DNA from: a virus
Length of the DNA stretch: 64,000 bases
Virus record (IMG/VR): IMGVR_UViG_3300037231_000129
Coordinates: 1-64,000 of that record
Direction: 5' to 3' (one strand)
The position numbers were made by a program, and so were the translations under genes. Numbering within the stretch: the first letter of the stretch is position 1; each line of letters starts with the position of its first letter. The notes beneath the pieces are model-generated. The model worked only from the letters and a program-made list of their open reading frames with translations, was not told the origin of the DNA and did not search any database. Positions 1-24,700 of this stretch are shown one piece after another.

Positions 1-385
1 GTGATGGCAGGATCGAGCCGTCCTGCCGGGTGCGTCTGTCCACATCGTCGCGGAATTCATGCACCACGTACGGGTTTTCACCCGGACCGTGCAGGGGCGC
101 GAAGGGTTTCTCACCATCGACGTTGAACCATTCGCCCAGTTCATGATTTTCCACGCCGCGGCAGCATTCGAAGATCCAGCGCCGCCAGGTCTTTTCGTTG
201 TACGAGGCGGGCGGCACCGGAAAGTAATGCCGCACGGTTATCTCGTCGTCCGGATCCCTGGCGTCCGGGCCGCTGACCGCGATCACCAGGCGCAAAGCCC
301 CCTCTTCCTCAATAATGCGGAAGCTCCACGTTGGTTTGCAGCGGACTTTTGCGACCAGGTCTCTGAGCACATCGAACGTGAACAT
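1..385 (-). CDS. Conserved phage protein, cut by window edge
   Basis: An open frame runs from an ATG at 385 to the window edge, giving 128 residues with no stop. The ATG directly follows the TAA (388-386) of the gene upstream, so both belong to one transcription unit. The second half holds the pattern RRWIFECCRGVENHELGEWF followed by PFAPLHGPGENPY, an aromatic and histidine-rich module I associate with unnamed proteins of tailed phages. No function is known to me. Its place at the end of the protease and giant-protein cluster suggests a virion or assembly role, which is inference only. Confidence 0.8.
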   Translation of the reverse strand, partial: MFTFDVLRDLVAKVRCKPTWSFRIIEEEGALRLVIAVSGPDARDPDDEITVRHYFPVPPASYNEKTWRRWIFECCRGVENHELGEWFNVDGEKPFAPLHGPGENPYVVHEFRDDVDRRTRQDGSILPS

Positions 386-1915
386 TTAGCGGGCTCCGAT
401 GCTCGGCGGCACGATCGGCGTACCACCGCCCAGATGCACGATTTTCAGCATTTCCTTCGCGGCGGCTTCAGGATTGCTCTTTGCCAGCGCTTCGATCCGT
501 TGCTGCTCTTCCTCGACCCGGTTGGTGGCCTGTCCTTCGATCACGACGTCATTGCCCTTGTTGACCGCGAACAACGCGCCCTTTGGTGGGGCAGGCATCT
601 TTTGCAGCCGGGTGACAGTCGCGCGCAGCAAGCCAAGCTGGCTCTCTGCCTCGGTGAATTTCGCGGCGTCCTTTTCCAATTTTGCGAGCTTCTCCAGGGC
701 GTCCGCCACGGTCGGATGCACCGCGACCTCGCCGGAATAGATCTTCGCCAGCGGTGTATCGCCGATGTCGAAGCCGCGGGCCTGCCGCTGCAACGGCTGG
801 GTGCCTGAGTTGTCGTTGGGCATCCCGGCGGTGTTGTCGGCGCTGTTGGGATCGGTCGGATCGTCGGTCGGATCGGCGCCGGCGCCCTGTTGCAGCGAAC
901 CGGCGACGACGACAATGATGGACGCCAACCGGGTAATCATCTCAATCGGATCTTGCGGCGCATCGCCCGGGTCGGCCCCAGGATCGCCCGGATCGGACGC
1001 GTCATCCGGATCCGCGCCAGTTCCCAGTGTCTCGTCTTCCGCCTTTTCGAACAATTCCGGGTATTCCTCGACAATCGCCGCCGGCAATGCGCCCATCTTG
1101 ATCATCGGCTCGGCCATTTCCAAGGCCATGTTGGTGAGCGCGCGCGCGCCCTCGGCCCAATCCGCAACCAGGTCGACCGGATCGGTCAGGTATTCGCGGT
1201 AAGCTGGTGGCAGCGCCGTCTTCACCATCAGATCGAAGCCGTCGTAGCATTCGATCTTGTGCAGCTCGCCGGCCGCCTCGGCGCGCTCCAGGTCATCCTG
1301 CTCATCGAGTTCCTCGGCGGTGTCGTTGACCATGGATTGCAGCGTGGTGACGCCCAGCCGCAGAAACAGGTCCATCTTGCTCTTGGCGCCGTCGCTGACT
1401 TCTTCGGGCGCCATTCCATCGCTGTTCGACATCCAGCTTGGCCGGCCGGTTTTGATCGCCTGTACCGTGCGGTCGAGATCGCGCAGCGCGTTGGCGAACA
1501 TCGAGACGTGGTTCAGCCCTTTCTCCAGGGTTTCCTCGGTGGCGCCGCTGATGAAGAACGGCTCCAACTTCTCCATCAGCGCGTCTCGGAACTCGGAGAG
1601 CGTCTGATGCAGCAGCGTTTCCTGGTTTTCCGCCCCGCCGGCGGCGATGCCGATCAGGCTTTTTTCCAGAAGGCCGAAGACGTCGTCGGTGAGGTGGTCC
1701 GTACCCTTAGCCATCTTGTCTCCTTTACGCCGGCGCGTGCCGGGTTTGATGAGCCATGAAGTGTTCAGCAGAGGCACCGGACGGCGCTTGCGCCGGCGCG
1801 GCCGCAGATCCGTGTTCGTCAGGCCCGAGAAAGCGTCCGGCGATTGCCAGAAGCCGCCGCCATGGCCGTAGCTGGCATCACCGCCGGCACCTGCGCCTGC
1901 GCCGCCATCGCTCAT
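386..1915 (-). CDS. Acidic structural-cluster protein of unknown function
   Basis: A 509-residue frame whose ATG (1915) overlaps the stop of the giant gene upstream as TGATG and is preceded by an AGGAGG ribosome site. An in-frame ATG at 1714 has its own good site (AAAGGAG), so a shorter 442-residue product starting MAKGTDHLTDD is possible; the first 67 residues are Gly-rich then very basic (RPRRRKRR, GTRRRKGDK) and differ in character from the rest. The body is acidic and helical, with a low-complexity DPDDASDPGDPGADPGDAP-type linker near residue 300 and a charged helical C-terminus. I recognise no domain. Context points to a head or internal virion protein. Confidence 0.75.
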   Translation of the reverse strand: MSDGGAGAGAGGDASYGHGGGFWQSPDAFSGLTNTDLRPRRRKRRPVPLLNTSWLIKPGTRRRKGDKMAKGTDHLTDDVFGLLEKSLIGIAAGGAENQETLLHQTLSEFRDALMEKLEPFFISGATEETLEKGLNHVSMFANALRDLDRTVQAIKTGRPSWMSNSDGMAPEEVSDGAKSKMDLFLRLGVTTLQSMVNDTAEELDEQDDLERAEAAGELHKIECYDGFDLMVKTALPPAYREYLTDPVDLVADWAEGARALTNMALEMAEPMIKMGALPAAIVEEYPELFEKAEDETLGTGADPDDASDPGDPGADPGDAPQDPIEMITRLASIIVVVAGSLQQGAGADPTDDPTDPNSADNTAGMPNDNSGTQPLQRQARGFDIGDTPLAKIYSGEVAVHPTVADALEKLAKLEKDAAKFTEAESQLGLLRATVTRLQKMPAPPKGALFAVNKGNDVVIEGQATNRVEEEQQRIEALAKSNPEAAAKEMLKIVHLGGGTPIVPPSIGAR

Positions 1916-4900
1916 CAGAAGCCTCCTGCGGCGGGTTGCGCTGGAGCCGCCGGCGTGATCGAGGCGGCGTGGCGGGCACGCGTTGCAGGCGGGACGCCCA
2001 GCGTCGCGGCCGCCTGGTTGGCGACGTGCGGGCCGTAACCGGACAGCGCACGATACAGCGCGCTGATCCCCTCGTCGGCCAGATAGCCGGCGCCGGCGCC
2101 GATCGCGCCGCCAATCGCGGTACCGGCGACGTTGCCCGCCAGCGTGCCGCCACCAGGCTCCACGGCTGTCCCGGCAATGTCACCCGCGACACCGCCGACA
2201 TCCTCGCCGGCCGCCGCGCCGGCGCGTTGGAAGAAGCCCCCGGTCAGACGGGTCGCGGCACCGGCGATCTTGCTGCCGACCGCCTTGACGCTTTGACCAA
2301 CCGAAGATCCGGCGATCTTGCTGCCGAGGCCGGGCAAATTCGCGGTGTTCTGCGCATTGGCGATCGCCCCGCCAATCTTCTGGCCGACACCGGTCTGCGC
2401 GAAACGGTTGGCCGCGCCGGAAATCGCCTGTCCGGCACCGGTCTGGCCGAATTTATCGATCGCAGCCTGCGCCAGTTGCTTGCCCGGCTTGGTCGCCAAA
2501 CTTGTGGCTCCGGCACCCACGACGAGGCCGCCAAGCGACCCTGCGGTTGGGTGGTTGGGATTGAGGGCACCGGATTGGCCGACTTGGCCGCCGACAATGC
2601 CACCCACAGCAGGGGCCAGCGCGCGCAAACCCGTCGAGATCAGACCACCGCCTGGAATGAAATTGGAGGCGGCATTCGCCAGCTGAAATCCGGCTTCGCC
2701 ACCGGCATAGGAACCGCCAAGAGTGCCGCGGAATGCATTGTGCAATCGGCCGCGTTGCGGACCGGCCGCACCAGGTGCAGCGGTCGCAGCCGCGCCGGCG
2801 ATCGCCGGTGGTTTCGCGGGGGCCGTCTCGCCAGGAACATCGCCATTCGCCGCGGCCGCGCCGGCGATCGCCGGCGTCTTCGGCAATTGGATGGCATCCG
2901 ACGCGCCAGACCAGGACAGGAACTTGCGCAGGCCGTCCAGCGGCTCCTGCTTCATCACGTTCCTGTCGATCCAGCTGTTCAGCTTACGTGCGGCCACGTG
3001 ATGGATGTCCTCGTCGGATGCGAGAGGTGTCTGCTCGCGTGCCCGGCGGATCTCGCCACGGAACATCTTGTCGATGGTGTCGCGGAATTCCTCGTTGGTG
3101 CGCCATTCCTCGGGACGATGGCTTTCCGGGATTTCTTCAGTCAGCCGCTCTTGCAAATCACGCAAGTATTCGTCGGTGGTCTTCGCGGCTGCTGATGCTT
3201 TGCCGGTCGGCGGCGTGGCGGCGGTGGCATTCGTGTAGGCCTTGTCGACGGCCTCGGTGAGCTCTGACTGCATGATCGCCGGCAGACTGTAATGCTGCGC
3301 GATCAACCATATCGCCCGCTGTATCTGCTTATGTTCGTCGGCATTTGTGGGCGTATAGACGGCGATCTGCTTGCGCAGCTGGCCCAGCACGCGGCCTTTG
3401 TCGCTGGTTGCGGACTCACCGTAAACGTTGTCGGGATTGCCGAAGATGCCGCGTTTCGTGGCGTTTCCTACGAGCAGTTCGGCACGCTGGTTCTGATCGA
3501 GAACCTCCGTGCCGTGCGACTCGAACAGGTCCTTCAGGGAATTCCAGTAACTGACCGGCTTATTAGTCGTGGCGTGTTTGTATTTGGGACCGATGAATGC
3601 CAAGTGTTTTTTGAACAAGCCATCGACCATGTCCTGATCAGCTTTTCCAGGACTACCGCCGCGACGTTCGCGAAACTGCGCATTGGCAGGGCCGGTGCTG
3701 ACGATGTGGTTTTCACGCCGCAGCTTATCGACGGTCTCGTTGAGCGACTTTGGATCGGCGACCTCGATGGTGGATGCCTTCACCTGGTTCTGACTACCAC
3801 TGCCCTGCTGGTTGTCGCGGTTGCGCACCTCGTTCCGGATTTGCTCGACGTTTGATCCGAAGGGGATCTGCACCGCGGCAGACGCACCAGGTTCGTCCTT
3901 CTTCGGGAAGACATGGTGGCCATACATGAAGACCTGTTGGTTCTCAGCATTCCGGTAAGACAAGCCCATGAGCCGCTCACCACGTCGATTGAGGCCGCCA
4001 ACCGGTTCATTGATAACTCGGATATCCTTTGGCCTCTTCCATTTCTTGGTATTGATCTGGAACGGCCTGGTGGGTGAGCTGGCGTCGATCACGCCGATCG
4101 ACGTCGCGAGGCCCAGCGCGGTGCTCAGCTTACCCGAATTTTGGAGGGCAAACGCGCCGACTTTCTTCGCCTTGGCGGCTGCGCTGGCACCCACACGCTG
4201 GGCTGTCTCACCGGCCGTCTTCCAGTTCGTGTTGGCGTGCAGGAAATCGTAAATGTCCTTCAGCGTGCCTTTCAGCGAGCCGCGATGAGCAGCCACCAGG
4301 GCTTCGTAATCGACCGCCGCCTGTTGCATGCGCCCAGCGAGTTCCGGGACGTGGCGTTCGAAAGCAGTTCCGAGTAGCCCGTGCTTCGGAATCCCGGCTT
4401 CCAGTGCCGCCTGCTGGACCGCGATGAGCGTGTTGAGATGGTCGGCGGCGACCCGCGCATGGATGTTGGAGTCGTGGAGGAAATCCCGGCTGGCCTTGGT
4501 TTTAACCTCTGCCTCTTTGGCGTCGAAATTCGGCACCGGGGCAAAATATTCAGGCTTTTTGGAGAACGGATTGCGTATTGCCACTCGCTCGGCGTCCGTC
4601 AAATCTTTCGATTCGGAGCCACGGGCATACTGCAGTGCAGGCTCGCCAAGCTTCATCTCGTCCGCGATGAAGCCGAGCTCGGCATTCACTTTGACTTCCC
4701 AATCATTGTGAACGTTTTCCAGCTCTTCCAACGCCGCCTTGCGGGTTTTTGCGACAAGGTCGTGACCCATCCGGGTCTTCGCAAAGGTGCGGATCGAGGC
4801 CAGTGAGGTGTCATCATGGTCGAAATCGGATAGCCGGTCAGGGACCGCCGTCAGGTCACGCTGCAGTCCATTCCGTCTGGTTTCAAGCTCCTTGATGAGG

Positions 4901-6888
4901 CTGCCGACCTTCTGAGTTTCCGCGGCCCGCTCGATGTGGATTTTTTCGAAACTCGCCAGCGCGGCTTTCCGGTGCTTCACCAGGTCAGTCCACAGCAGCA
5001 GCTGCTTTGGATTCAGTTTCTCTTCATCCAAGGTGTTGATCAGATTCCCTTGGACGGCGCGGCCGGTCTTATCGAGCAACGGCAATCTTTTGCCCTTGGC
5101 GTCGAGATCCGCCACCGCGCGCAGAGATAATGGGCCTTGCGTGCTCATGGCGGCCTTGTCTAAGGCCACATCGATCTGGTGCGGATACCAGCTCCGCGCG
5201 CCATCCCGAATTGCCGCCCCTTCGCCGAGCGACCACTTGTTCACCGCGTTGCGTTCCAACGCTTCCTTGACGAGTTGATGGGTCGGCGTAGTGACAAAAG
5301 CGGGATGATTGGCCGCTACTCCGGGCGCAAAATGGCCAATTTCCTTATGCTCATCGATGTAGGTTTTGGCATGCACCTCACGCGCGGCCAGCGTGGCGCG
5401 GTCGTGCATGCCCGTCGCAGCGGCTCCAAGACGGGCCAGGGCCGCGCGCAGCAGGGCGGTATGACCTTCGCGTGCCGCGACAACGCCGGCGACCACGCCG
5501 GCACCAATGCCGACGGCCGCGCCGATCTTGGCGCCGAGGCGCGCGTGCTGACCGCTACGCGCAAAGCGGCCACCTTCGCCACGCGGATGCTCGGTGGGGT
5601 CGAAGTGATCGTAGGCCGCGCCGGCGATCGCGCCGACACCTGCGCCGGCAGCGCCGAGGACAGCGGCATGCTTGGCGGTGTAGCGAATACCACCGCCGCG
5701 CCTGACGCCAAACTCCTCGGCCATCTTGGCCTGGCCGAGCCAGGGGATGCCCACCTGCTCGCCGATGCTGTGACTGGCGACGCTGGGCCACAGCGTGGCG
5801 ATAACCCGCCTGGCGCCCGCCACAGCCCCCCGGAAATTAGCTTTTTGGAGGAGGTCAGCCTGCTTGGCGAGCACCTCGGGCGCTTCCAGCATGGGCCCGG
5901 CGATCTTGCGCACCCGCCGCGGAAACGCCGCGTCGACATAAGGCCCGACAGCCGATTGCAAATGGAACAACGAAGATCCGTAAGCGAGGCCAGGCACCCC
6001 AGCCCCAACCACCGCGCCAGCGAGAATCCCGGCAGCTCGGCCAGCGCCGGTGCCAAAACGTGGTGTGATCAAGGCACGCGCCAAACGTTTGCCTGTTGCC
6101 GGGAACACGTTGGCCGCATAACTCACGAACTCGCCCGCGCCGTGTCCAAGCGCCCGACCCGCTGCACCGCCAATGCGCTCGGCGGAATCGAGCAGTGCGT
6201 CGCCTGCCGTTGCGGAAGGCCGCGCATACGTCGTTCCATAGGTTCGATTGATTGCGCCGATCGCGCCGCGTGCCACCATGCGCCCTGCCACGACCGGCGC
6301 ACGAACAACCGCTCGGCCTGTCAGCTGACCAAGTTTTCCGCCGGCCCACCCCAAGGCGCGGGTTTGCGCATGATCCAACCGGCCACCGCCGAATTTCGCC
6401 GACGCGCCGGCGATCGCGCCAACGCCTATCCCGGCGGCGCCGGCGATCGGCGGTCCGAAGACGGAATACCGGGTTTCCGGGATGATCTGGGTTTGCGATG
6501 CGTCATACCCGGCGTTGCTGTCGGCGAGGTTCTGGTGATCCTCCGGCCGGGCGACGTCGCCGAAGAAGCCGTGTTGACCGCTGTCCGGTGGTGACCCACC
6601 ACCGCCTGATCCACCACCCGACGAGAACCGACCGCGTTCATCACGCCCCTCGACCTTGGCCAGCACGCGATCGCGTAGGCGCTCGAGGTGAGCGTCGATA
6701 TGCATCAAGGCATGCTGATGCGGATCGGCACCGTTGTAGAACCGCTTATACAAATCCTTCAAACTCGTCAGTTTTGTCAGAGCCGTTTCACGTTTAGCCG
6801 ACGCGCCGGCGCTCTTCAGCAGCTCGTTGTGCTCGATCACACGACGACGCAACTCGGCGATGACGGGTGGGGAGAAGGCAACCTTCAC
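1915..6888 (-). CDS. Giant Gly/Ala-rich virion-cluster protein (1657 aa)
   Basis: The longest gene of the window. It starts at an ATG (6888) overlapping the stop of the protease gene. Residues 1-80 are helical and charged, then a RDERGRF motif (about 82-88) and a Gly/Ser linker lead into alternating Gly/Ala-rich hydrophobic stretches (for example GAAGIGVGAIAGAS, GAKIGAAVGIGAGVV) that could insert in membranes as glycine-zipper helices. A second motif of the same kind (GEGGRF) lies near residue 440. The middle (about 500-1230) is soluble and helix-rich; the end returns to Gly/Ala repeats. The peptide PAIAGAA or PPIAGAA recurs. Such architecture fits an ejected internal virion protein that helps DNA cross the cell envelope; that is inference, as no catalytic domain is visible. 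Confidence 0.8.
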   Translation of the reverse strand: MKVAFSPPVIAELRRRVIEHNELLKSAGASAKRETALTKLTSLKDLYKRFYNGADPHQHALMHIDAHLERLRDRVLAKVEGRDERGRFSSGGGSGGGGSPPDSGQHGFFGDVARPEDHQNLADSNAGYDASQTQIIPETRYSVFGPPIAGAAGIGVGAIAGASAKFGGGRLDHAQTRALGWAGGKLGQLTGRAVVRAPVVAGRMVARGAIGAINRTYGTTYARPSATAGDALLDSAERIGGAAGRALGHGAGEFVSYAANVFPATGKRLARALITPRFGTGAGRAAGILAGAVVGAGVPGLAYGSSLFHLQSAVGPYVDAAFPRRVRKIAGPMLEAPEVLAKQADLLQKANFRGAVAGARRVIATLWPSVASHSIGEQVGIPWLGQAKMAEEFGVRRGGGIRYTAKHAAVLGAAGAGVGAIAGAAYDHFDPTEHPRGEGGRFARSGQHARLGAKIGAAVGIGAGVVAGVVAAREGHTALLRAALARLGAAATGMHDRATLAAREVHAKTYIDEHKEIGHFAPGVAANHPAFVTTPTHQLVKEALERNAVNKWSLGEGAAIRDGARSWYPHQIDVALDKAAMSTQGPLSLRAVADLDAKGKRLPLLDKTGRAVQGNLINTLDEEKLNPKQLLLWTDLVKHRKAALASFEKIHIERAAETQKVGSLIKELETRRNGLQRDLTAVPDRLSDFDHDDTSLASIRTFAKTRMGHDLVAKTRKAALEELENVHNDWEVKVNAELGFIADEMKLGEPALQYARGSESKDLTDAERVAIRNPFSKKPEYFAPVPNFDAKEAEVKTKASRDFLHDSNIHARVAADHLNTLIAVQQAALEAGIPKHGLLGTAFERHVPELAGRMQQAAVDYEALVAAHRGSLKGTLKDIYDFLHANTNWKTAGETAQRVGASAAAKAKKVGAFALQNSGKLSTALGLATSIGVIDASSPTRPFQINTKKWKRPKDIRVINEPVGGLNRRGERLMGLSYRNAENQQVFMYGHHVFPKKDEPGASAAVQIPFGSNVEQIRNEVRNRDNQQGSGSQNQVKASTIEVADPKSLNETVDKLRRENHIVSTGPANAQFRERRGGSPGKADQDMVDGLFKKHLAFIGPKYKHATTNKPVSYWNSLKDLFESHGTEVLDQNQRAELLVGNATKRGIFGNPDNVYGESATSDKGRVLGQLRKQIAVYTPTNADEHKQIQRAIWLIAQHYSLPAIMQSELTEAVDKAYTNATAATPPTGKASAAAKTTDEYLRDLQERLTEEIPESHRPEEWRTNEEFRDTIDKMFRGEIRRAREQTPLASDEDIHHVAARKLNSWIDRNVMKQEPLDGLRKFLSWSGASDAIQLPKTPAIAGAAAANGDVPGETAPAKPPAIAGAAATAAPGAAGPQRGRLHNAFRGTLGGSYAGGEAGFQLANAASNFIPGGGLISTGLRALAPAVGGIVGGQVGQSGALNPNHPTAGSLGGLVVGAGATSLATKPGKQLAQAAIDKFGQTGAGQAISGAANRFAQTGVGQKIGGAIANAQNTANLPGLGSKIAGSSVGQSVKAVGSKIAGAATRLTGGFFQRAGAAAGEDVGGVAGDIAGTAVEPGGGTLAGNVAGTAIGGAIGAGAGYLADEGISALYRALSGYGPHVANQAAATLGVPPATRARHAASITPAAPAQPAAGGF

Positions 6889-9326
6889 GCGGCGACCTTC
6901 CGCGGTTCAAGGATCTCGCGGATATGCGTGATCAGGCCACGCGGCGCCATTTTCGCTACCGCAGGCGCAGCTTTGCCGTGTTTCTTGATCCAGTCATCCG
7001 CCTCGGCCGGATGCAGCACGTAGAGCGGGTTTGACGGGGCGCCGTCATGGCCGAAATGCTTCTCGCCAACGCCTTCGGGGTTGTGCAGCAGGCCTGCCGC
7101 GTGTGAGACCTCCATCATCAGGTTGGCGTGCTTCGGCAGGTGTGGCCGCACCTTGTCGTAGGCGCCCTGGGCGTCGCCAACGGCGTGCCAGGTGTTCCGC
7201 CGCTGCTGGTCGACCGCGGCGACCTTGTTCTTGCGGCCGAGCACGGCTTTGCCGGCATGGGTCCGCATGCTGTCGAACTGGTCGTCTAGGTCGTGATGAC
7301 CTTCCTTCAGCCACCGGGCTTTCGCCGCAGCGATACGCTGATCGTGTTCTTTCTCGGAAAGGTTGCTGTGTGCGACGGCTTGCTGACCAACGGCTGCCTG
7401 AGCACCAGTGACTGCCAATTTTTGCATGTAGTTCGGCTTGGCGAGTTCGCTGTCCGGCTTCTTTTTGCCAGACAAAGCACGCCCCGCTGCAAGCCCGGTG
7501 ACGGCACCGCCAACTCCGCCAGCAATACGGCCAGCCTGACGACCCTGAACCGCGCCTTGTACCGCATCATCCAAGCCCATGTCGCCAGCCTCGTAGGCTT
7601 TTTGGCCAAGATGAGCCATTGTGTCCAAACCGACCTTTCGACCGAGTTTAGCGCCCAAATAACCGCCGGCTGCCGCTCCCAACAGACCAAGCACTTTGTT
7701 CATGGGCTGCTGGCGTTTCGCCAATCGCTCATCCAACGCCTCGAGCACCGCGCTGTCGGCCGACTTCATGTAATTGGCCATCCTCAACCTCTCCGCATCC
7801 GGTTGCTTCATCGGATCTACCGTGTGCATCGGGCGCAGCTGCCCATCCGTGTCGAGATGCAGGCCCGCCGCGGTCAGCTCATCCTCGGTCATTTCGTCGG
7901 CGTGCTTGCCGGTCTGGCCCTGCGTCCGGCCGTCAGCGTCGCGGCCGCGTTTGGCCAGCTCCCAGAGGATCGCCTTGTCGGCGCTGTTCGCCAGCGGATC
8001 CGTCGAGCCGGGCCCGGTCCCGCCCATTGACCCAACCTGCGCCTGGCGCAGACCGCCGACGCTCATGTTCTGCGGCTTCGAGCTCGGGCCGTAGACGAAG
8101 CTTTTCGCGCCCATGATACTGCCGATCTCACCACCGTCGCCGCCGGCGCCGTATTCCGGTTTGCCGGTGTCTACGGTGGTGACGTCCTTGCGCAGGCGCT
8201 GCTCGAGGGCGACGAGAACAGGCTCGGTTTTACCAAGCCGGCCGGCCTGACTGAGGGCGATGGCGATAGCCTGTTTGCGATCGGTCACTATCGGCCCCCT
8301 TCGCGGTTTGCCCGAGCGCGGATTCGTCCCGCGCCAGGAGCGCAGCGTGCCAACCTTGTGCTCGTGCATCGTCTGAGCGATCGATGCGCGCTTGGCTTCT
8401 TCGGTGGCCGCAACCTCTGCATCGGCTTTTGCCAGATCGAAAACGATTGGTTTACCGGCCATTTTCTTGAATCCGGGCTCAGTGCTGCGGCTGGTGAACG
8501 TCTTGCCCCGGCTCGTGACCGTCGTCGCCGTACCGGGATCCACCTGGCGGCTCATCGGTTTGTTGCCCCTCACTGTCGTGTAAGCCCAACTCGGCAGGAC
8601 CTTCTTCGTCGGGTTCTGACCGCTGAATGTCTTGCCGCGGCTGACGTAGTTGCCCGCCAACGAGGCTTCGTGCTCGCTGGCCTCGGCCGGCAAATGCGGG
8701 AGCATCCCGACCACGCGCCGGACATCGATCTTGAGCAAATCCGCGAAGGTCGGCGGTGGCAGCATCTGCGCGAACGTGCGCGGCGTGCCCTTCAGCATCA
8801 CCTCCTCGACCGAACCATCCGATTTCTGCAATTCGAGGAATCGCGCGCCGTGCATGCAAGGGCTGTCGACCAGGCTGATTTCGCCGATCCGCGGCGTGTA
8901 GCGGGTGCAGCCTTTATGGATGGGATCAGCCCATTTCTTAGCGTAGCCGCCGCCGATCGACAGCCCGGTGTAGCCGCCCTCCTCGACCTTTAGCCAGTCG
9001 ATGGGGTCGAGGATTTTGAGGCAAACCCGAACCCTTTTCGCCTCATCGTCGAATTCCATCTTCTCGACTTTGCCGGCCAGGTGCTTCGGATTGTGCATGG
9101 CGCGCACGTTGCCGAGGCTCTTGCCGCTGGTCGCGTCGGAGAACTGTTTCGACCATGCCTTGAACATCGGCACGGCCGTGGCGTAGTCCATCACCTCACG
9201 CGATTTGTCCGGCTCCTCGAGCGCCGCCACTGCCCAAATCGTCTGGGTTGCCGCGTCAGCCTTGAACAGAATCGCCGCGTCCGGCTTGAACAACAGCGGG
9301 AACGGCGTTTCACCGCCGATCGCCAT
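6885..9326 (-). CDS. XkdF-like capsid maturation protease with C-terminal extension
   Basis: I take the ATG at 9326 (MAIGGETPF), two bases from the upstream stop; a GTG at 9368 is possible but lies inside the upstream gene. The first 160 residues fit the XkdF-type putative phage serine protease family: LGNVRAMHNPKHLAGKV, EFDDEAKRVRVCLKILDP, YTGLSIGGGYAKKW and IGEISLVDSP. H78 and S123 are the likely catalytic pair. Around 310-370 is a short module resembling DUF6496 (MHEHKVGTLRSW, RKQAIAIALSQAG). The C-terminal 300 residues carry a Gly/Ala-rich hydrophobic stretch (GLLGAAAGGYLGAKLG) and a charged helical end. At 813 residues it is far longer than a plain prohead protease, so the tail part may be a virion cargo released by self-cleavage. 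Confidence 0.85.
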   Translation of the reverse strand: MAIGGETPFPLLFKPDAAILFKADAATQTIWAVAALEEPDKSREVMDYATAVPMFKAWSKQFSDATSGKSLGNVRAMHNPKHLAGKVEKMEFDDEAKRVRVCLKILDPIDWLKVEEGGYTGLSIGGGYAKKWADPIHKGCTRYTPRIGEISLVDSPCMHGARFLELQKSDGSVEEVMLKGTPRTFAQMLPPPTFADLLKIDVRRVVGMLPHLPAEASEHEASLAGNYVSRGKTFSGQNPTKKVLPSWAYTTVRGNKPMSRQVDPGTATTVTSRGKTFTSRSTEPGFKKMAGKPIVFDLAKADAEVAATEEAKRASIAQTMHEHKVGTLRSWRGTNPRSGKPRRGPIVTDRKQAIAIALSQAGRLGKTEPVLVALEQRLRKDVTTVDTGKPEYGAGGDGGEIGSIMGAKSFVYGPSSKPQNMSVGGLRQAQVGSMGGTGPGSTDPLANSADKAILWELAKRGRDADGRTQGQTGKHADEMTEDELTAAGLHLDTDGQLRPMHTVDPMKQPDAERLRMANYMKSADSAVLEALDERLAKRQQPMNKVLGLLGAAAGGYLGAKLGRKVGLDTMAHLGQKAYEAGDMGLDDAVQGAVQGRQAGRIAGGVGGAVTGLAAGRALSGKKKPDSELAKPNYMQKLAVTGAQAAVGQQAVAHSNLSEKEHDQRIAAAKARWLKEGHHDLDDQFDSMRTHAGKAVLGRKNKVAAVDQQRRNTWHAVGDAQGAYDKVRPHLPKHANLMMEVSHAAGLLHNPEGVGEKHFGHDGAPSNPLYVLHPAEADDWIKKHGKAAPAVAKMAPRGLITHIREILEPRKVAA

Positions 9327-9327
9327 C

Positions 9328-10812
9328 TCAGGCCGCCGTCGCGAAGCGTTGCCGCAAGCGCACCCCACCAGCAGGTTCAGCTGCCGCCCGGGGCGGTTCC
9401 CAACCCATGATCGCCTTGGCCAGCGGCAACGGGATCTCCTCGGCCGTCGCCAGCGCCTCCGCGACCCACTTCTTCAGCTGGATGGTGTTGGCGTCTTCCT
9501 GCAACCATGCGGTGATCGCGCCGTCGAGTGCTACCTTCTGCAACTTGTCGCCGGCTTGCATCGACCAAGCCATCAGATCGGCGGCATGCTGCGCGCCCAC
9601 TCGCATCACCTCGACCCGTGATTCCGGCTCCAACGTGTTCAGCGCCTTGCACATCTCCAGCGGTGCGATCTTCACCAGCTCGACCGCCAGGTCGCCGCCC
9701 TTGTCCATCTTCTTCTTCGGGCGCTTCTTGCCGGTGGCCGGATCGACGCTGTCGGCGTCATTGGCCTCGGTCAGCGGTCCATCGCCCTCCGAGCCCGCCA
9801 CGCTGCCCAGGCCGCCCGTGGCGCCCTTGCGGCGGATCTTCAACGTCGGATTGATCTCGCCGCCGCCGCCATCATTGGGACCGCTGCCGGGGGTTGGGCT
9901 TGTGCCGTCCGTCTGATTCGGCATTGCCGTTGAACCGGGCATCCGCTTGCCCGCGCCTTCGCCGCTGCCCTGCCGGGTGTAACCCAAGCGTGAATCGTGC
10001 GTCGCGCCCAGCTTCGATCCCACGTGGCTGGCGGCGTTCCCGGCATTGCTGTGCGCCGGAACCTCATCCTGCTCCTCGGCCTTCCGCAACGCGCGCTGGC
10101 GTACCAAAATTTCCGCGACCGCCTTTTTCAGCTGCTTGTGGCTGCCGTCGCCACCGTTGATGAACTCGGCGATCGCGGCTTCCCGATCGGCATCGGAAGT
10201 CTTGTAGACGTCCATCTTGGCCAGTGCGTTGTCAAAATGCGCGGTGTAATTGCCCACATGCTGCGCCAGCCTGGCCTGCTCGCGTGGCGTCGGCAGAGCA
10301 TCGAACATCTTCTGCAGCTCGAATTCCGGGCCAACGTCAGGCGCAGCCTTGGCCAGCGCCGGGAACTCCTCACTGCCGGACTCGGAATTGACCAGCGCCT
10401 TCTTCAGCGGGCCGTCGCCGGCCTCGAACCACTCCTCGAGGACCTGCTTGGCCATGTCCTCGTCGGCGTCGCGGATCATCGGCATGTAGTGGCCGAGTTC
10501 AGTGCGATACGAGCCGATCTTGATCAGCATCGCCGCCTTTCTTTCCGGCGTCGGCTGCTCATCAACGAATTTCACCAGTGCCGCATCCAAGCTGGCGCGG
10601 GTTTCGTCGAGCGTTGGATTTTGCGTGCTCACGGAAGACTCCTGTTTACCGAAAAGGCTTTGAAAAAAGCTCGGGGCTTTGGTCTTTGGCGTTTTGGGCG
10701 GTGGCGTGTCGGCGGCGTTCGTCTCATTGGAGTTGATCGCGATTTTGCTGCCGATTTCGAGGGCATCGGGCGCGGCCATGCTGACGAAACGCCCCAGGGT
10801 GCTGCCGCTCAT
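9328..10812 (-). CDS. Possible scaffold-like or head-assembly protein
   Basis: 494 residues from an ATG at 10812 that overlaps the gpF-like gene stop (ATGA). It is mostly charged helix with a Pro/Lys segment at the start (PPPKTPKTKAPSFF), a disordered Gly/Ser/Asn middle (about 255-320) and a basic stretch KKRPKKKMDKG. A helical unit seems to occur twice (PERKAAMLIKIGSYRTELGH and PREQARLAQHVGNYTAHFDN), each about 80 residues long, so an internal duplication is likely. I recognise no family. Its position between the gpF-like protein and the capsid protease is where scaffold proteins often sit, which is the only reason for that suggestion. Confidence 0.7.
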   Translation of the reverse strand: MSGSTLGRFVSMAAPDALEIGSKIAINSNETNAADTPPPKTPKTKAPSFFQSLFGKQESSVSTQNPTLDETRASLDAALVKFVDEQPTPERKAAMLIKIGSYRTELGHYMPMIRDADEDMAKQVLEEWFEAGDGPLKKALVNSESGSEEFPALAKAAPDVGPEFELQKMFDALPTPREQARLAQHVGNYTAHFDNALAKMDVYKTSDADREAAIAEFINGGDGSHKQLKKAVAEILVRQRALRKAEEQDEVPAHSNAGNAASHVGSKLGATHDSRLGYTRQGSGEGAGKRMPGSTAMPNQTDGTSPTPGSGPNDGGGGEINPTLKIRRKGATGGLGSVAGSEGDGPLTEANDADSVDPATGKKRPKKKMDKGGDLAVELVKIAPLEMCKALNTLEPESRVEVMRVGAQHAADLMAWSMQAGDKLQKVALDGAITAWLQEDANTIQLKKWVAEALATAEEIPLPLAKAIMGWEPPRAAAEPAGGVRLRQRFATAA

Positions 10813-12680
10813 GACGCCACCAGCGCTGATCGGATCATGGTGCCCCTCGGGATGAATTTGAAACCGCAGCTGCAACGGCAATTGATGACGTTGTCAGCGG
10901 TGGCCTGTTCGTCGCAGGGCCAGCGAATCGGCCCCAGGATCGACTGGAATGGCGTCTCGATCCCCTGCACTTCCTGGCCGCCCAGCTCGACGTGGGCTTC
11001 GCGGGTGCGTTCGTCGTCGGTGTCGATCCAATGCTTGATCACGTCCAGGTTTGGGTGCGTGTCCAGCACGTCCTGGGCGCGCGCCACCGCGCCGTAGGAG
11101 GTCGCGCGGATCGATTCCGTCCGGGCGATCGTCTGGGCCCGCAGTGCCAGCATCCGCCGATGGTAGGCGTCCACCATCGGGTTGATCTGCTCGGGGGTCA
11201 GCGCCTTGTCCTCGCGGATCGCGCGCTCGATCGTCTTGTCGTAGCGCTTGTCGCGCAGCTTCATCTCGAAAACGCTGGAATCGAGGTTCTCAAGCTTGCG
11301 GCGGAAGCTGTTCACCACGTTGGTCTGATAGGCGGTCAGGCCGATCGACTGCTTGATCGTGCGCGCAACCTCCAGCGGGCCGATCCCCTGCAGGACGGAC
11401 TGGTCCATCAGCGTCTTGCGGATCGTGTCGCGTTGCTGGGTCGAAATTTCGGCGATCCGGTCGAGTGCATAGGTGGCCATGTGCCGGCGGACCGCCGGGT
11501 TGATGAGATCAAAGTCGGTGTCGATCCGATAGCGCGGGTCGCTGCCGTCCGGCTGTTCGGTGGGTGGTTGCGTCGCGCCGTCGGCGTAGGACTCGAAGAT
11601 CCCCGGGCCCAGCGCCGCAATCAGGTCGTCGCCGATGTTGATCGGCTTGTCGCTGTTGCCCAGCAGCCGATCCATCCACTGGCGATAGGTCTCGGCCATG
11701 TTGGTGGCCATGCCCTGTTCAGTGGCCTTGGTCGCCTTGCTCAGCTTGCCCTTACGCTCGGCCGCCGCCACCAGGTGGTGTGCCAGCAGGGTGATGCCGG
11801 CCGCCGTCAGGCCGATGCCGGCGCCGATCAGCGCGCCTCGGCCGCCGGCGCGGTTCATGTGGATGTGCAGGAGCGCCTCGGTCTCGTTGACCACGCGGAC
11901 TCGCGTGCTCTCGCGCAGCTCGGCCGTGCGACGTTCCAGCGTACTCAGCAGTGAGGCGCCATGCGCTTTGACCCCGCGTTGGGCAGCGCTGATGCGTTCA
12001 ATGATCTTTTTTTTCGTCTCGCCACCAACCCACGCATGCATGACATGAGCTTTGACGGGATGCTTCTGGCCGAGACCGGTTTCCAGATCGTCGCGGTGCA
12101 TCTCCATTCTGACCATGTCAGGGGTGAGGCCGAACATCTCCATGTCAGCCATCGACTGATCGAGATTTTTCAGGTCACGGGCGAGTTTCGCGCGATTGAG
12201 GACACGCTCGGTCGGCGCCCGTACAGTGGCTTTCGGCGGTTTGCCTTTGAGCGTCTGGAGCTGTTTGATTCCGTCCTGAAGCGCCTTGAGCTTCTCAGGA
12301 TCAGTTGTGTTCCCGATCAGCTGGTTCAACGCCGCGACCTGGAAGTCGTAAACCGCCCGGTTCTTCGGGGTGCCGATATACGGCGCCTCCGGTCGCGCAG
12401 GATTCGGCGTGCCGCGCAGACTTTGCTTCATTTCCTCGACAATCGCCGATCGCTGCGCTTCAGCGTCCGTGACAACGCCCTGGTCAGCCGCGTGGACGGC
12501 GTCGGCCATTTTCCGGGGTGCAGCTCGGGCCACGTTGTATCGACCTGCCTCAGCGCCGATTACAGCGCCGGCGACGGCACCGCCCGCGAGAAGACTCCAC
12601 CGGGAATGGGCCGCGTTACGCCGTTGGCGTAGTTCCGCTGGGCTGAGCGGGTCGCCAACGATGTGTTTTGCGAGCTCCAT
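10809..12680 (-). CDS. Mu gpF-like / SPP1 gp7-like head morphogenesis protein
   Basis: 623 residues. The C-terminal domain has the family signature: ARTESIRATSYGAVARAQ, then HWIDTDDERTREAHVELGGQ, PFQSILGPIRWPCDEQ and NVINCRCS close to the end, where the NxxNCRC pattern and the preceding His region define the Mu F family of minor head proteins made in few copies and needed to start capsid assembly or DNA ejection. The N-terminal 300 residues are an extra: a Gly/Ala hydrophobic stretch (LLAGGAVAGAVIGAEAG), charged coils, and another hydrophobic Gly-rich helix near 280-300. It heads the minus-strand cluster that runs to the left edge and faces a divergent plus-strand gene. Confidence 0.88.
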   Translation of the reverse strand: MELAKHIVGDPLSPAELRQRRNAAHSRWSLLAGGAVAGAVIGAEAGRYNVARAAPRKMADAVHAADQGVVTDAEAQRSAIVEEMKQSLRGTPNPARPEAPYIGTPKNRAVYDFQVAALNQLIGNTTDPEKLKALQDGIKQLQTLKGKPPKATVRAPTERVLNRAKLARDLKNLDQSMADMEMFGLTPDMVRMEMHRDDLETGLGQKHPVKAHVMHAWVGGETKKKIIERISAAQRGVKAHGASLLSTLERRTAELRESTRVRVVNETEALLHIHMNRAGGRGALIGAGIGLTAAGITLLAHHLVAAAERKGKLSKATKATEQGMATNMAETYRQWMDRLLGNSDKPINIGDDLIAALGPGIFESYADGATQPPTEQPDGSDPRYRIDTDFDLINPAVRRHMATYALDRIAEISTQQRDTIRKTLMDQSVLQGIGPLEVARTIKQSIGLTAYQTNVVNSFRRKLENLDSSVFEMKLRDKRYDKTIERAIREDKALTPEQINPMVDAYHRRMLALRAQTIARTESIRATSYGAVARAQDVLDTHPNLDVIKHWIDTDDERTREAHVELGGQEVQGIETPFQSILGPIRWPCDEQATADNVINCRCSCGFKFIPRGTMIRSALVAS

Positions 12681-12845: not shown

Positions 12846-13985
12846 ATGAGACTGGACAACTCCGAGATGCCGGCGCTACGGTGTTTGGCACAGAGTCATG
12901 GACCAAAAACAATGGCGCGAAACCTGCGAAAATTGCTTGCTGGAACCGAAGTAGCAGAATTCACACCGCCAGGCGTGCCGGGTGGTTTCGCCTCATCCAC
13001 CGAATTGCTGCTCAACACCGTCCTCGCGGCATGGAAAGATGGGAGCCCAGCCGAAAGCGAGACGGATGTGCGTGAATGGGCGTCCTATGGAATGGCGCTG
13101 GGCCAGGCCGACAGACGGGTGCGCTGGGAAATCGGCGACTGGTGGAACCGCGGCGAACGCTACGGCGAGCGCGTCGATATCGTCAGCCATCCCGACTGGA
13201 AAGGCCCCTCCTACGGCACGTGTCGCACGTATGGATCGATCGCGGCGAAGTTTGATCTGTCTACGCGCATGTACAATCTCGATTTTGAGCATCACCGCCA
13301 AGTGGCCAAAATACCCGCCGATAATGCAATTCGTATCCTCCGGGATGCCAGCGCACAGGCCACGGAAACAGGGAAAGTCCCGCCGGCGCGTCAGCTTGGT
13401 CAGCAGGCGAAAAAGGAGAAGCGGGCGACAAGGGAAGAAGAGCTTGATGAAGCCGCCCAACGGCAATCCTCGCGGCTTGGCACGAAAGTCTATCCGGTAA
13501 TTTTGGCCGATCCGCCGTGGCGCTTCAAAGTCTGGGGCGAAAAGACCGGCATGGATCGCGCGGCCGACAATCATTATCCGACCATGGCACTCGAGGATAT
13601 CTGCACGCTGCAGGTCCCGGCCGCCGACGATTGCGTGCTCTTCCTGTGGCGAACTGGCTCGACCTCACGCAAGGCTCACCAGGTCATCGATGCCTGGGGT
13701 TTCGAATGCAAAAGCGAGTTCGTATGGGGCAAAGACCGCATCGGGAACGGCTACTGGGTGCGTGACAAGCATGAGGTGCTGATGATCGCGACCCGCGGGA
13801 ATCCGCCAGCCCCGGCGCCGGGCGAGAATCACGACTCCCTGCAGCTTCTGCCCAAGGGCAAGCACAGCGCCAAGCCCGAGCGGTTTTACGAGATCATCGA
13901 AAAATGGTTCCCGAGTTGCGACAAGCTCGAGATGTTCGCGCGCGCGCCGCGGGATGGCTGGGACAGCTGGGGGAACGAGCTATGA
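12846..13985 (+). CDS. MT-A70-type adenine methyltransferase fused to LmbU-like DNA-binding domain
   Basis: 379 residues if the first ATG is used; no strong ribosome site marks it, and starts further in (ATG at 12912) are possible. Residues about 80-170 read RWEIGDWWNRGERYGERV, then FDLSTRMYNLDFEHHRQVAK, matching the layout of an LmbU or ParB-related helical domain with its HH..VA core (H149, H150). A charged linker follows. Residues 213-379 are an MT-A70 domain: ILADPPW (DPPW at 222-225), LFLWRTGSTSRKAHQVI, GYWVRDKHEVLMIATRG and the terminal PRDGWDSWGNEL. These enzymes make N6-methyladenine, here probably in phage DNA as protection from host restriction. It leads an operon of tightly overlapping genes. 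Confidence 0.9.
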   Translation: MRLDNSEMPALRCLAQSHGPKTMARNLRKLLAGTEVAEFTPPGVPGGFASSTELLLNTVLAAWKDGSPAESETDVREWASYGMALGQADRRVRWEIGDWWNRGERYGERVDIVSHPDWKGPSYGTCRTYGSIAAKFDLSTRMYNLDFEHHRQVAKIPADNAIRILRDASAQATETGKVPPARQLGQQAKKEKRATREEELDEAAQRQSSRLGTKVYPVILADPPWRFKVWGEKTGMDRAADNHYPTMALEDICTLQVPAADDCVLFLWRTGSTSRKAHQVIDAWGFECKSEFVWGKDRIGNGYWVRDKHEVLMIATRGNPPAPAPGENHDSLQLLPKGKHSAKPERFYEIIEKWFPSCDKLEMFARAPRDGWDSWGNEL

Positions 13986-21785: not shown

Positions 21786-24700
21786 TCATTGTTGCGGGAC
21801 AGACGAGTCAGAAGGCTGATCGCCAGCGGCTTGGTAGAGCGGTGGAGCTGTGTAACGTGTACCCGATGATGCTGCTATGGCAGCTCCTCCTGCGGCCGCG
21901 CCCGCAATCGTTCTCGATGCGGGGCGGATCCCAGCCATTCCGGTCTTACGGGCGAGCTGGGCATGCTGTAACGCGGCTTTCTTGCCGGCGGTCATGGCTT
22001 TGCGAGCAGCGGTTTGCATCAGTGGCGAAGGACTACCGCCGTCGAGAACACGGACGTGCTCGCGGAGTGCCTCGTGCAGGCCATGCCGGTACAGGCTTTG
22101 GGTGGCGCCGCGCACCCCACGGACAGCGCGCCCATGGGTCAGCAGCGCGGCAGCGCCGCCGGCAATAGCCCCGCCGGCGATCGCGCGTGCCATCGGGTGG
22201 TTCGCCAACTCCTCTTTGACCTTCGGCGCCACCAGCGCAGCGCCAGCGCCGGCGCCGACGCCCATGCCGATTTTCAGCTTGGTGCTCGATGAAGCAAAGC
22301 GACGTCCCAGGCTGGCGCCCATGCTGGCGAAGCTCTTCCCAAGTTCGCCTTTGCTGGGGAAATCGGCGCCATATTTGTCGCGCCATTCCTTCTTGCAACT
22401 GGAACATAGACCGGGGCCACCGCAGCGAGCCTTGATTCCGTGCGGATGCGGGGTGACGTGGCCATGGCCGTATGCGCCTCCGAGCGGGATGAACGCCTTT
22501 GTCAGCGGCTTTTTCTCCTTGCCGCGGAACGCCCATGCGCCGGCGGCCGCGAGTCCACCGTAAATCAACGCACCCGGCAGACGCCCGGCGAGCCGGCCTG
22601 CATGGAACGATGGACTGAGCAGGCGCCGGCCGACACCCCGCCGCAACGCGGCTTTCTCGTCTTGCTCAACCAGCGATGCGAAGACGATCCTGTGGCCTTC
22701 CCTGGTATGGCGGATTTTGTCGACGCGGATCTTGCTGCCCGCGCCAAGTGCTACTTCCGCCTGCGGACCCTGAAGCGGATTGGCGCCTTCGACGTCCCAC
22801 ATGTGCGTTTTGTTGTTCAAGCCGCGCAGATGCACCCGCACCTTTTTCTCGCCGGCCTTTGTATTCGCGCCGCCCACTGCCGCCGTTAACCTAGATCCCG
22901 CTCGACTTGCGGGACCTTTCTCTGTTTCCGCGACTTCCTTCGGCGTGCCGGTTTTGCTTGCGTAATCGAAGTGGGTGAAATGGCTTCCAATGCTAGAATC
23001 ACGCGTCCAGGAGTTCGGCGCGTTCATGGTGATGTGGTCGCCTTCCTTGGCATTGAGAAATGCCTCGGCGCCTTTGCCGTGCATCCCGCGCCACAGGTGC
23101 TTCGGTGGCGGCTTTAGAGCCGGAGTGCCAAACAATCCTTTCAGCGCTTCATGCAGGCCAAAAGGATCGTGACGCGGCCTCTTTTCCCCACCAAACCCGG
23201 TGCGCTCGGCGCCGGCTTCGTTGATATGACGGATATTGTCGTGTGATCCGACCATTCCGGCGGCAAATCGCTGCTTGGACGATCCTTCGCCGTAAGCGCC
23301 CTGAACATGGGCATGCACAACGCCCTGACGCCAACCACCCAAAGCCGCCGCTTGCCGCATGCGCCGCACCGTTGGATGAACTCCGAGGAGCCCCTTGGGC
23401 GCAGCCCCGGTGGCTGCACTGTAGGCGTCGCCACCGTAGCGGATGCCGAGCGAACCGCCGGCGATGGCCCCACCGGTCACAGCGCCGATTTTACCGGCGC
23501 TCCACCGGCCGCCCTGGTCACGCTTGTGCTTGGATTCCTCGTAGGCCTTCGCCAGCGGACCGCTGGTGTCGCAATTGTCGGCCCAATGCTTGAAGGTCGA
23601 AAAAGTCATCGTATGCACGGCGTTGCGCCGATCGGGGCCGCGGCCGTCGGAGAACGCCTGGTCATAGGTGGTCACCGCTTGTCCACGGGTGACGAACCCC
23701 AGGAAACTCTTGTGTTCGTCGAACGCCTTGGCGCCATGCGTCTTGTGCTGGTCGATGACGAAAACGGGGTGCTGGTCGGCATGATGCGCGTCGGGGCCGA
23801 GATAGACGTCCAGGTGGTCACCATCGGCGCCGACGGTCTTCTTGATGTAGCCGTAGTGCGCCGGCATGCGGACCGACCAGGCCTTACCGCTAGGGCCGAC
23901 CCCGCGCCGCATCGCGCCCTTCGGTGTCTCGATCGAGATATCGAGGCCGCCAACGAACAGGTGGCCCATGCGATAATTACCGGCCTTGGCTTGCGCGGGG
24001 CTTGGACTCTGTGTGCGCCTGGCGGCCGCGCGGACGTCGGACTCGGTCACCAGCCGCTTGCCGAGAGGTTGACGTTCCACGCCAATCTGTTGACGTTCAA
24101 CACTAATTTGTTCACGTTTTGCGCCGCGCTGTTGACGAATGGCCGGAAATTTCGGGTTTTGTTGACGTTCGTTATTTGCAACAGCCTGCTTCCCCATCGG
24201 CCCGAACTGCCAGCGCTCCTGCCGCGTGACGCCGCCGTTCAGCTGGCGATGCAGATCCCGCTGGGTGTTCAGCCGTAGCCGCAGCGCATTGCGTCGCATG
24301 CGTGGATGAATTGCGCGCTGTAGTTGGCGTTTCGGATCGGTGGTGAAATCCGAGCCCAGCCGGAAGCCGTAATCCATCTTCTCGAGGTCGCCCACGGGCT
24401 GGATCCGGTAGAGTCCAGTGACGTCGTCGTAGACGGTCGAGCCGCCGATCGTCGGCACGCCGAAGTGCGATTCAACCGATGCGGCCTGGTCCGTCATCGA
24501 GGACGCGCCGGAGATCGGTGGCAAGCCGCCAGGCGGCATGGGAATAGCTTTCCCAGCTCTGCCAGCGGCGATCGCCAGCGCCGCGAGCTCCAGCGGGTTG
24601 CTCGGCGCCGATGACTCGCCGCCGGCGCCGGCCGAGGCCTGTGGCGCGGTTCCGAAGCCGCTCATCAGGCTGTAGCTGCTGTAGCGACGACCGAGAGCCT

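What the first reader, a model, noticed from the sequence alone, without database searches (positions are those of the whole stretch)
1915..6888. Giant Gly/Ala-zipper protein with repeated RDExGR(F/W) motifs
Motifs of the RDExGR(F/W) type occur at residues 82-88 and about 440 here and at 14-20 and about 808 of the polyvalent protein, each time next to a change from soluble to Gly/Ala-rich hydrophobic sequence. They could be cleavage sites for the virion protease or recognition tags for packaging in the capsid.
Basis: partly seen in the sequence, partly recalled or inferred. Interest (0 to 1): 0.55.

Follow-up and report, generated by a model that had tools for sequence, protein, structure and literature searches.

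The report
Shared tag on phage head proteins
A giant protein of an uncultivated bacterial virus carries two copies of a short sequence that recurs, across many unrelated bacterial viruses, at the front edge of proteins probably carried inside the virus head and injected into bacteria; it looks like a loading label or a cutting mark, and it could be tested directly.

Summary
The motifs are real: two copies in the 1657-aa giant (aa 82-88, 436-442) and two in the 1384-aa polyvalent protein, in no other of 103 predicted proteins; 1000 shuffles never gave four. Nine distinct giant homologues keep both sites. The motif belongs to a widespread phage element, "tag A": [FW]-[DENT]-[EP]-x-x-HPRDxxGR[FW], with looser variants. 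A strict pattern gave 63 hits in viral contigs, 0 reversed. Tagged proteins carry effector domains (ADP-ribosyltransferase 12 of 85, Zeta toxin, NUDIX, RelA/SpoT) not seen in 85 control ORFs. It sits near the N-terminus or follows MuF or portal domains. An unrelated motif, "tag B" (W[IV]T[IV]NGxHV), takes the same positions in other phages, never in the same loci. Best reading: a portable label for loading cargo into the head, like T4 and P1 capsid-targeting sequences but modular and widespread; a protease cut there is possible. Neither loading nor cutting is shown. The giant has no Pfam match; internal ejection protein is inference.

The parts
1915..6888 (-). Giant 1657-aa protein, no Pfam match, carries two tag A copies
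6649..6888 (-). N-terminal helical domain of the giant (aa 1-80), conserved in nine homologues, the only part of aa 1-600 folded with confidence
6625..6645 (-). Tag A site 1 of the giant, RDERGRF, aa 82-88, in a low-confidence (probably unstructured) linker
5563..5583 (-). Tag A site 2 of the giant, RGEGGRF, aa 436-442, in coil between two Gly/Ala-rich helices
5611..5667 (-). Gly/Ala-rich hydrophobic stretch aa 408-426 before site 2
5476..5532 (-). Gly/Ala-rich hydrophobic stretch aa 453-471 after site 2
21786..25940 (-). 1384-aa polyvalent protein with inorganic pyrophosphatase domain, carries two tag A copies
25881..25901 (-). Tag A, W form, RDEGGRW, aa 14-20 of the polyvalent protein; HPRDxxGRF or HKRDxxGRF in three homologues
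23502..23522 (-). Tag A, W form, KRDQGGRW, aa 807-813, just after the pyrophosphatase domain (aa 649-787)
6885..9326 (-). Protein of about 813 aa with a region like phrog_21715 (protease-like N-terminal part) and DUF6496; possible processing enzyme
386..1915 (-). 509-aa protein between giant and predicted capsid gene, conserved with it; no tag
10809..12680 (-). MuF minor head protein, no tag here

Best explanation
The repeated motif is a portable recognition tag (tag A) that marks the front edge of proteins or domains meant for the inside of the phage head. SHOWN by sequence: it is a real, conserved short motif, in the giant lying in low-confidence coil; it recurs in many otherwise unrelated phage proteins, often several times per genome; it stands near the N-terminus of free proteins, or after MuF or portal domains in fusions; and a second unrelated motif (tag B) replaces it in other phages. 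INFERRED: during prohead assembly a head component (scaffold, protease-scaffold, capsid interior or portal ring) binds the tag and so loads the tagged protein, as the N-terminal capsid-targeting sequences of T4 internal proteins and P1 DarB do; after loading, a prohead protease may cut at or beside the tag, which would also free effectors fused to portal or MuF. The 1657-aa giant, encoded between a protease-like protein and the predicted major capsid protein, would then be an internal head cargo, probably an ejection protein whose Gly/Ala-rich helical ends insert in the cell envelope (weakest step). The pyrophosphatase polyvalent protein would be injected cargo loaded through the same tag.
For: Chance excluded: 4 copies in 103 proteins, 0 of 1000 shuffles reach 4; strict pattern in viral contigs 63 hits, reversed 0. 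Conservation: both sites in 9 of 9 distinct giants; 7 of 40 invariant columns fall in 16 motif positions (hypergeometric P 6e-5); polyvalent N-terminal copy in 4 of 4. Positions not used for selection are conserved too: aromatic at -5 in 60 of 84 copies, background 6%. Cargo identity: of 85 tagged fragments, ART 12, Zeta toxin 3, MuF 3, NUDIX 2, and one each of portal, RelA/SpoT, PBECR2, ART-PolyVal and others; of 85 untagged control ORFs from the same loci, ART, Zeta, NUDIX and RelA are not among the 25 families shown of 27. Position: 47 of 84 within the first 80 aa; MuF-tag order in 5 of 5 Pfam-mapped fusions, tag 24-58 aa after MuF, e.g. MuF 187-266, tag 294, Zeta toxin 409-583; portal 100-453, tag 527-535, ART 545-681 in isolate phage Orimi01. 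Copies within one genome share flanks: 38% identity, label shuffles mean 18%, 0 of 2000 as high, although codons agree only 50% against 40% expected. Substitutability: ARTs 54% identical to Orimi01's carry tag B in the same place; tag B marks the same kinds of protein, is within the first 80 aa in 53 of 80, and A and B never share a locus in the loci scanned. Precedent: P1 DarB residues 1-30 suffice for head targeting (PMC9024508, section 3.3 read); T4 internal proteins are diverse with only a conserved targeting sequence (PMC3012670, passage).
Against: No binding partner, virion proteomics or processing data. A loading tag should be needless in proteins already fused to portal or MuF, yet it is kept there, and several proteins hold 3 or 4 copies, which suits cut sites as well or better. 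Of five ART loci found without using the motif, one (L214) has neither tag, and L211-L213, which share the same tag region, should count as one. Some in-frame copies lie in cellular genomes (18 stretches in 257 Gb, about half look genuine) and may not all be prophage. P1 Dar proteins, which are known head cargo, have neither tag. That the giant is in the virion rests on gene position only; its middle domain has no confident structural match.
Confidence: 0.55

Rival explanations
1. The motif is mainly a cleavage site: a prohead protease cuts at it and releases effectors from MuF, portal, protease or each other, like a polyprotein. No loading role.
For: Tag between MuF or portal and a downstream effector; three or four copies in one polypeptide at spaced positions (L071, L032, L166); an XkdF-type peptidase with tags upstream in the same ORF (L171); T4 and SPN3US proteases cut targeting propeptides (PMC7411985, passages).
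Against: Predicted major capsid protein and 509-aa protein of this phage have no motif; no capsid family among the families matched by the tagged fragments; the conserved element spans about 14-17 residues, long for a cut site; many free proteins have it within a few residues of the N-terminus.
Confidence: 0.22
2. The motif is a flexible linker or unfolding and ejection element between domains, kept for passage through portal and tail, without a dedicated receptor or protease.
For: Lies in very low-confidence coil of the model; Gly-rich residues follow.
Against: Several invariant residues, a conserved aromatic at -5 and flank agreement within genomes are more than a linker needs; an alternative sequence class exists.
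Confidence: 0.1
3. The motif is a recombination seam: DNA homology at the tag lets phages swap effector modules.
For: Same tag before unrelated domains; several copies per genome.
Against: Codons for the same residues agree in only 50% of pair-sites against about 40% expected, so DNA identity is not what is kept.
Confidence: 0.05
4. The giant itself is not head cargo but a scaffold or core protein of the prohead; its motifs bind the effectors' receptor for assembly reasons.
For: Gene lies between the protease-like gene and the predicted capsid gene, a usual place for scaffolds.
Against: A 509-aa conserved protein already lies next to the capsid gene; 1657 aa with hydrophobic Gly/Ala-rich ends is unlike a usual scaffold (established knowledge, not tested).
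Confidence: 0.15

Closest known systems
Capsid-targeting sequence of phage T4 internal proteins IPI-III and Alt
   Same: Diverse head-packaged host-directed proteins share only a short N-terminal sequence (PMC3012670 and PMC7411985, passages); Alt is a ribosyltransferase, and ART is the commonest tagged domain here
   Different: T4's is about 10-20 aa at the extreme N-terminus; tag A also occurs inside proteins, in several copies, and after portal or MuF domains. Sequences of the T4 targeting peptide were not compared here. No packaging or cutting shown for tag A
Capsid-targeting sequence of phage P1 DarB
   Same: N-terminal 30 residues of a 250-kDa head protein suffice to load a reporter (PMC9024508, section 3.3 read)
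   Different: P1 DarB, DarA, DdrA and DdrB have neither tag A nor B, and the authors found no consensus shared by Dar proteins
Polyvalent proteins and MuF/portal/peptidase fusions of Iyer, Aravind and colleagues
   Same: Many tagged proteins with a Pfam match belong to this class (InPase, ART, Zeta, NUDIX, RelA/SpoT, 2H-type, PBECR); the authors state fusions to MuF, portal and capsid-processing peptidase (PMC9503650, passages)
   Different: The string GRF is absent from the main text of PMC5512222 and of PMC9503650; the joint motif is not mentioned in the passages seen
Cargo-loading peptides of encapsulins (recalled, not tested)
   Same: A short peptide directs cargo into a shell with the capsid fold of tailed phages
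   Different: Recalled to be mostly C-terminal and of different sequence; no comparison was made here

Membership tests
Phage capsid-targeting sequence (functional class) | Short sequence sufficient to direct a protein into the head | not testable with these tools
   Needs a packaging experiment
Phage capsid-targeting sequence (functional class) | Shared by otherwise unrelated cargo of one phage | tested here: met
   46 contigs hold two or more relaxed copies; flanks agree within genomes although the neighbouring 110-130 aa are unrelated in 65 of 69 pairs. That the proteins are cargo is inferred
Phage capsid-targeting sequence (functional class) | At or near the N-terminus of the cargo | tested here: inconclusive
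   Within the first 80 aa in 47 of 84 tag A copies and 53 of 80 tag B copies; the rest are internal
Phage capsid-targeting sequence (functional class) | Removed by the prohead protease (T4) | not testable with these tools
   Needs N-terminal proteomics of virions
P1 DarB targeting sequence (by sequence) | Presence of tag A or B in the P1 Dar proteins | tested here: not met
   No tag A or B in DarB, DdrB, DdrA, DarA, Prt or Pro; Hdf not examined
General maturation-protease cleavage site | Present in the capsid protein or scaffold of the same phage | tested here: not met
   Only the giant and the polyvalent protein carry it among 103 predicted proteins
General maturation-protease cleavage site | Cut observed at the motif | not testable with these tools
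   No proteomics
Polyvalent protein: the 1384-aa protein | Polyvalent-type enzymatic domain, large, encoded with head genes | tested here: met
   InPase 1.7e-42, near the portal gene
Polyvalent protein: the 1657-aa giant | At least one recognised polyvalent domain | tested here: not met
   No Pfam match in 6 of 6 family members scanned
Ejection / internal virion protein: the giant | Present inside the head and injected | not testable with these tools
   Inferred from gene position beside protease-like and capsid genes and from Gly/Ala-rich ends
Tape measure protein: the giant | The phage's tape measure gene | tested here: not met
   A separate 1629-aa protein matches tape measure phrog_1716, 1.8e-20

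The most novel reading that the evidence does not exclude
Tailed phages of many kinds of bacteria share a general cargo-loading code for the virion: at least two unrelated, mutually exclusive short tags (A: [FW]xxxxHPRDxxGR[FW]; B: W[IV]T[IV]NGxHV) that stand in front of a protein and load it into the head, each read by its own head component, so that injected effectors of very many phages could be listed from sequence alone.
Probability: 0.4. Interest if true: 0.88.

Novelty: new variant of a known kind. Interest (0 to 1): 0.7.

Why it matters
How phages choose which proteins to carry inside the head and inject is, as far as I know, worked out at the sequence level for very few systems (T4, P1). 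A short signature recognisable by sequence would turn many 'hypothetical' head-cluster proteins into a list of predicted injected effectors, including counter-defence proteins, and would make the loading question directly testable: fuse the tag to a reporter, or change it in a phage of a laboratory host. The two exclusive tag classes also give a built-in specificity control and a handle for finding the receptor by comparing head genes of A and B phages. For this window it gives the giant protein and the pyrophosphatase polyvalent protein a common predicted fate.

Tried and rejected
Led nowhere: tblastn of the giant in named phages and an exact-peptide scan of viral contigs found no relative; the way in was the predicted major capsid protein, then a profile. 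Structure search of the giant's middle part (aa 880-1400) gave no confident match: best viral E 0.02 with TM about 0.1, best PDB E 0.33, best VIA Z 5.0 over 55 residues; a profile against PDB sequences gave only chance-level hits. The model of aa 1-600 was of low confidence except aa 1-80 and was not searched.

Rejected or weakened: tape measure (a separate gene); link of the motif to Gly/Ala zippers as a general rule (1 of 82); DNA recombination seam; general capsid-maturation site. The label 'capsid maturation protease' on Mycobacterium phage Damien gp10, which carries tag A at its N-terminus, was not taken as evidence: the protein is small, looks very basic, and has no Pfam match.

L127 and L128 are identical. 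In one search the aligner places a 3-residue gap at site 1 of the window; without the gap R82, G86 and F88 match. In one search, four of 69 pairs with similar neighbours were dropped. Expected codon identity comes from all long open frames and is probably somewhat too low. In one search the group of loci without a gene-like hit includes some true copies on short fragments. The control family table shows 25 of 27 families.

Full report
WHAT WAS CHECKED. The ORF at 1915-6888 on the minus strand codes for 1657 aa. A six-frame scan of the window finds RDERGRF at aa 82-88 and RGEGGRF at aa 436-442 of it, and RDEGGRW (aa 14-20) and RDQGGRW (aa 807-813) in the 1384-aa protein at 21786-25940, which has an inorganic pyrophosphatase domain. 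No other gene among 103 predicted ones of the 98-kb record has R[DG]xxGR[FW]; shuffled proteins give 0.087 copies on average and never four in 1000 trials. The claim that each copy borders a Gly/Ala-rich hydrophobic stretch holds for about two of four.

THE PHAGE. The window is bases 1-64000 of an uncultivated virus record of 98,024 bases. On the minus strand lie a terminase, portal, the pyrophosphatase polyvalent protein, a MuF minor head protein, a 517-aa protein, a protein of about 813 aa whose N-terminal part resembles phrog_21715 (and, locally, peptidase-bearing loci), the giant, and a 509-aa protein. I call the 813-aa protein protease-like on weak evidence: a marginal match to a head maturation protease family (E 0.14) and recruitment, by the iterated profile built from it, of an ORF that Pfam names XkdF peptidase (L171). 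The far end of the record carries a protein of phrog_13692 that I take as the major capsid protein (relatives in named phages are annotated as such) and a separate tape measure protein. In four distinct related contigs the giant and the 509-aa protein sit just upstream of that capsid gene, so the record is probably cut inside the head cluster.

THE GIANT FAMILY. Relatives were found through the capsid protein, through the motif scan (L122), and by profile: nine distinct giants with the window's. Over the first 600 residues they are 28-44% identical to it. Both motif sites are present in all nine, in fuller form than in the window, for example FDPGRHPRGRGGRF at site 1 and HPRDPRGRF at site 2. 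A third copy occurs in L127 and, degenerate, in L122 and L204. Of 40 columns invariant over aa 1-520, seven fall in the 16 motif positions (P 6e-5). AlphaFold2 folds aa 1-80 with fair confidence; both motifs lie in coil of very low confidence. The family has no Pfam match (6 of 6 scanned), and the folded middle part has no confident structural relative.

In the 80 loci first listed, the relaxed motif R[DGNSEQ]xxG[RQK][FWY] occurs 98 times in gene-like ORFs and reversed 3 times; leaving out the selecting string, 29 against 3. A stricter pattern gives 63 stretches in viral contigs, 0 when the peptide is reversed, and 18 in 257 Gb of bacterial and archaeal genomes, where about half look genuine. 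Over 84 non-redundant copies an aromatic residue stands five before the H in 60 (background 6%), then [DENT], [EP], x, [LK]; Gly is frequent four and five residues after the core.

WHAT CARRIES IT. Of 85 non-redundant tagged fragments, 12 match ADP-ribosyltransferase, 3 Zeta toxin, 3 MuF, 2 NUDIX, and one each portal, RelA/SpoT, mCpol, ART-PolyVal, PBECR2 and others. Of 85 control ORFs of at least 250 aa from the same loci without the motif, the listed families (25 of 27 shown) are portal, terminase, MuF and others, and none of ART, Zeta, NUDIX or RelA. These effector domains are among those described for polyvalent proteins and for fusions to MuF, portal and the capsid-processing peptidase (PMC5512222 and PMC9503650, passages read). 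NCBIfam, too, has no model of the motif among the families shown (25 of 44).

WHERE IT SITS. 47 of 84 copies lie within the first 80 residues. In fusions mapped by Pfam, MuF comes first and the tag 24-58 residues later in 5 of 5 (L011, L019, L049, L156, L190), followed in L049 by a Zeta toxin and in L190 by a 2'-5' RNA ligase domain; two more MuF fusions, L165 and L186, were seen only by a local profile. Portal domains precede the tag in L091, L188, Xanthomonas phage PhiXhv-5 and Pseudomonas phage Orimi01; in Orimi01 an ART begins some ten residues after it. In L171 two tags stand before an XkdF peptidase domain. Streptomyces phage Gilgamesh gp48, about 4600 aa, has it near its N-terminus, in the second gene after a portal-MuF fusion. 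The polyvalent protein of the window has it at its N-terminus, as do three homologues. Several proteins hold three or four copies.

COPIES WITHIN A GENOME. 46 contigs hold two or more relaxed copies. In the 19 contigs examined first, copies of one contig share 38% of the variable flank positions against 18% in label shuffles (0 of 2000 as high), after dropping 4 of 69 pairs with similar neighbours. Shared host and base composition may add to this. Codons for identical residues agree in 50% of cases against about 40% expected, so the conserved thing is the peptide.

A SECOND TAG. ARTs about 54% identical to Orimi01's carry, in place of tag A, the sequence WITINGAHV (L211-L213); one 60% identical carries tag A in a 778-aa ORF (L210); one 35% identical has neither (L214). 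A scan for W[IV]T[IV]NGxHV also stopped at 120 stretches. 80 non-redundant copies in ORFs were collected: 53 lie within the first 80 residues. Pfam matches of the 80 fragments include ART 4, three portal families (3, 2 and 1 members), Zeta 2, MuF 2, DUF2213 2, and one each of S78 protease, NUDIX, 2'-5' RNA ligase and polyvalent kinase. The MuF region ends at about 263 and the tag stands at 287 in L284; portal precedes it in L253 and L302. No tag B was found in tag A loci and no tag A (HPR[DG]xxG[RQK]F) in tag B loci. Host range and GC content may explain part of this exclusion. The reversed tag B was likewise not found in either set, but no reversed-pattern scan of the collection was made for B.

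READING. The pattern, unrelated cargo sharing only a short front element, is what T4 internal proteins show with their capsid-targeting sequence (PMC3012670, PMC7411985, passages) and what P1 DarB shows with its first 30 residues (PMC9024508, section 3.3). I therefore think a loading tag the best explanation (0.55), with a cut at or near it possible. The strongest argument against loading alone is that tags persist inside fusions to portal or MuF and in several copies per protein; this favours processing (0.22). The strongest arguments against processing alone are the length of the conserved element and its absence from the predicted capsid protein and the 509-aa protein of the same phage. P1's own Dar proteins have neither tag, so if the reading is right there are more tag classes.

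LITERATURE. Full-text string searches for twelve spellings of tag A and six of tag B found no paper in the held library of 5.39 million open papers; searches by topic listed no paper whose title or abstract start described such a motif. Subscription papers and preprints are not covered.

NOVELTY AND WEIGHT. As a kind of thing it is a variant of the capsid-targeting sequence: modular, internal as well as N-terminal, spread over many phage lineages, in at least two exclusive classes. It has not been shown to work as one.

Noticed in passing
L211-L213 and L215-L334: Second junction motif W[IV]T[IV]NGxHV[PLF][IV] (tag B) in the same places as tag A on the same kinds of effector, never in the same loci.
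   Followed up: partly
L214, upstream of the ART at about aa 285: Possible third kind of junction element, reading KYKKTAPGVWEKM, where tags A and B stand in relatives.
   Followed up: no
window 6885-9368 (-): DUF6496 short domain at aa 328-380 of the longer reading of this ORF; PF20223 (DUF6582), another family of unknown function, matched 4 of 85 control ORFs. They may be further short elements of head proteins.
   Followed up: no
L335:3995-4768 and L336:3992-4702: Genes named 'capsid maturation protease' in Mycobacterium phage Damien and Nocardia phage P3.1 code for small, basic-looking proteins with tag A (W form) in the first 20 residues and no Pfam match; the label looks doubtful.
   Followed up: partly
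window 12846-13985 (+): Plus-strand gene between the MuF and polyvalent genes with a DPPW sequence, recalled as typical of MT-A70-like adenine methyltransferases; not tested.
   Followed up: no
G000 ends (window 1-386 and record 95719-98024): The record starts within the head cluster, and the predicted capsid gene lies at the other end, as expected for a circularly permuted genome cut there.
   Followed up: partly
L137, L148, L149: Small proteins of about 160-170 aa in Treponema genomes carry tag A near residue 13-19; whether they are prophage genes was not checked.
   Followed up: no
L166, L161, L191, L064/L056: Loci with five to ten relaxed tag A copies, good candidates for testing.
   Followed up: partly
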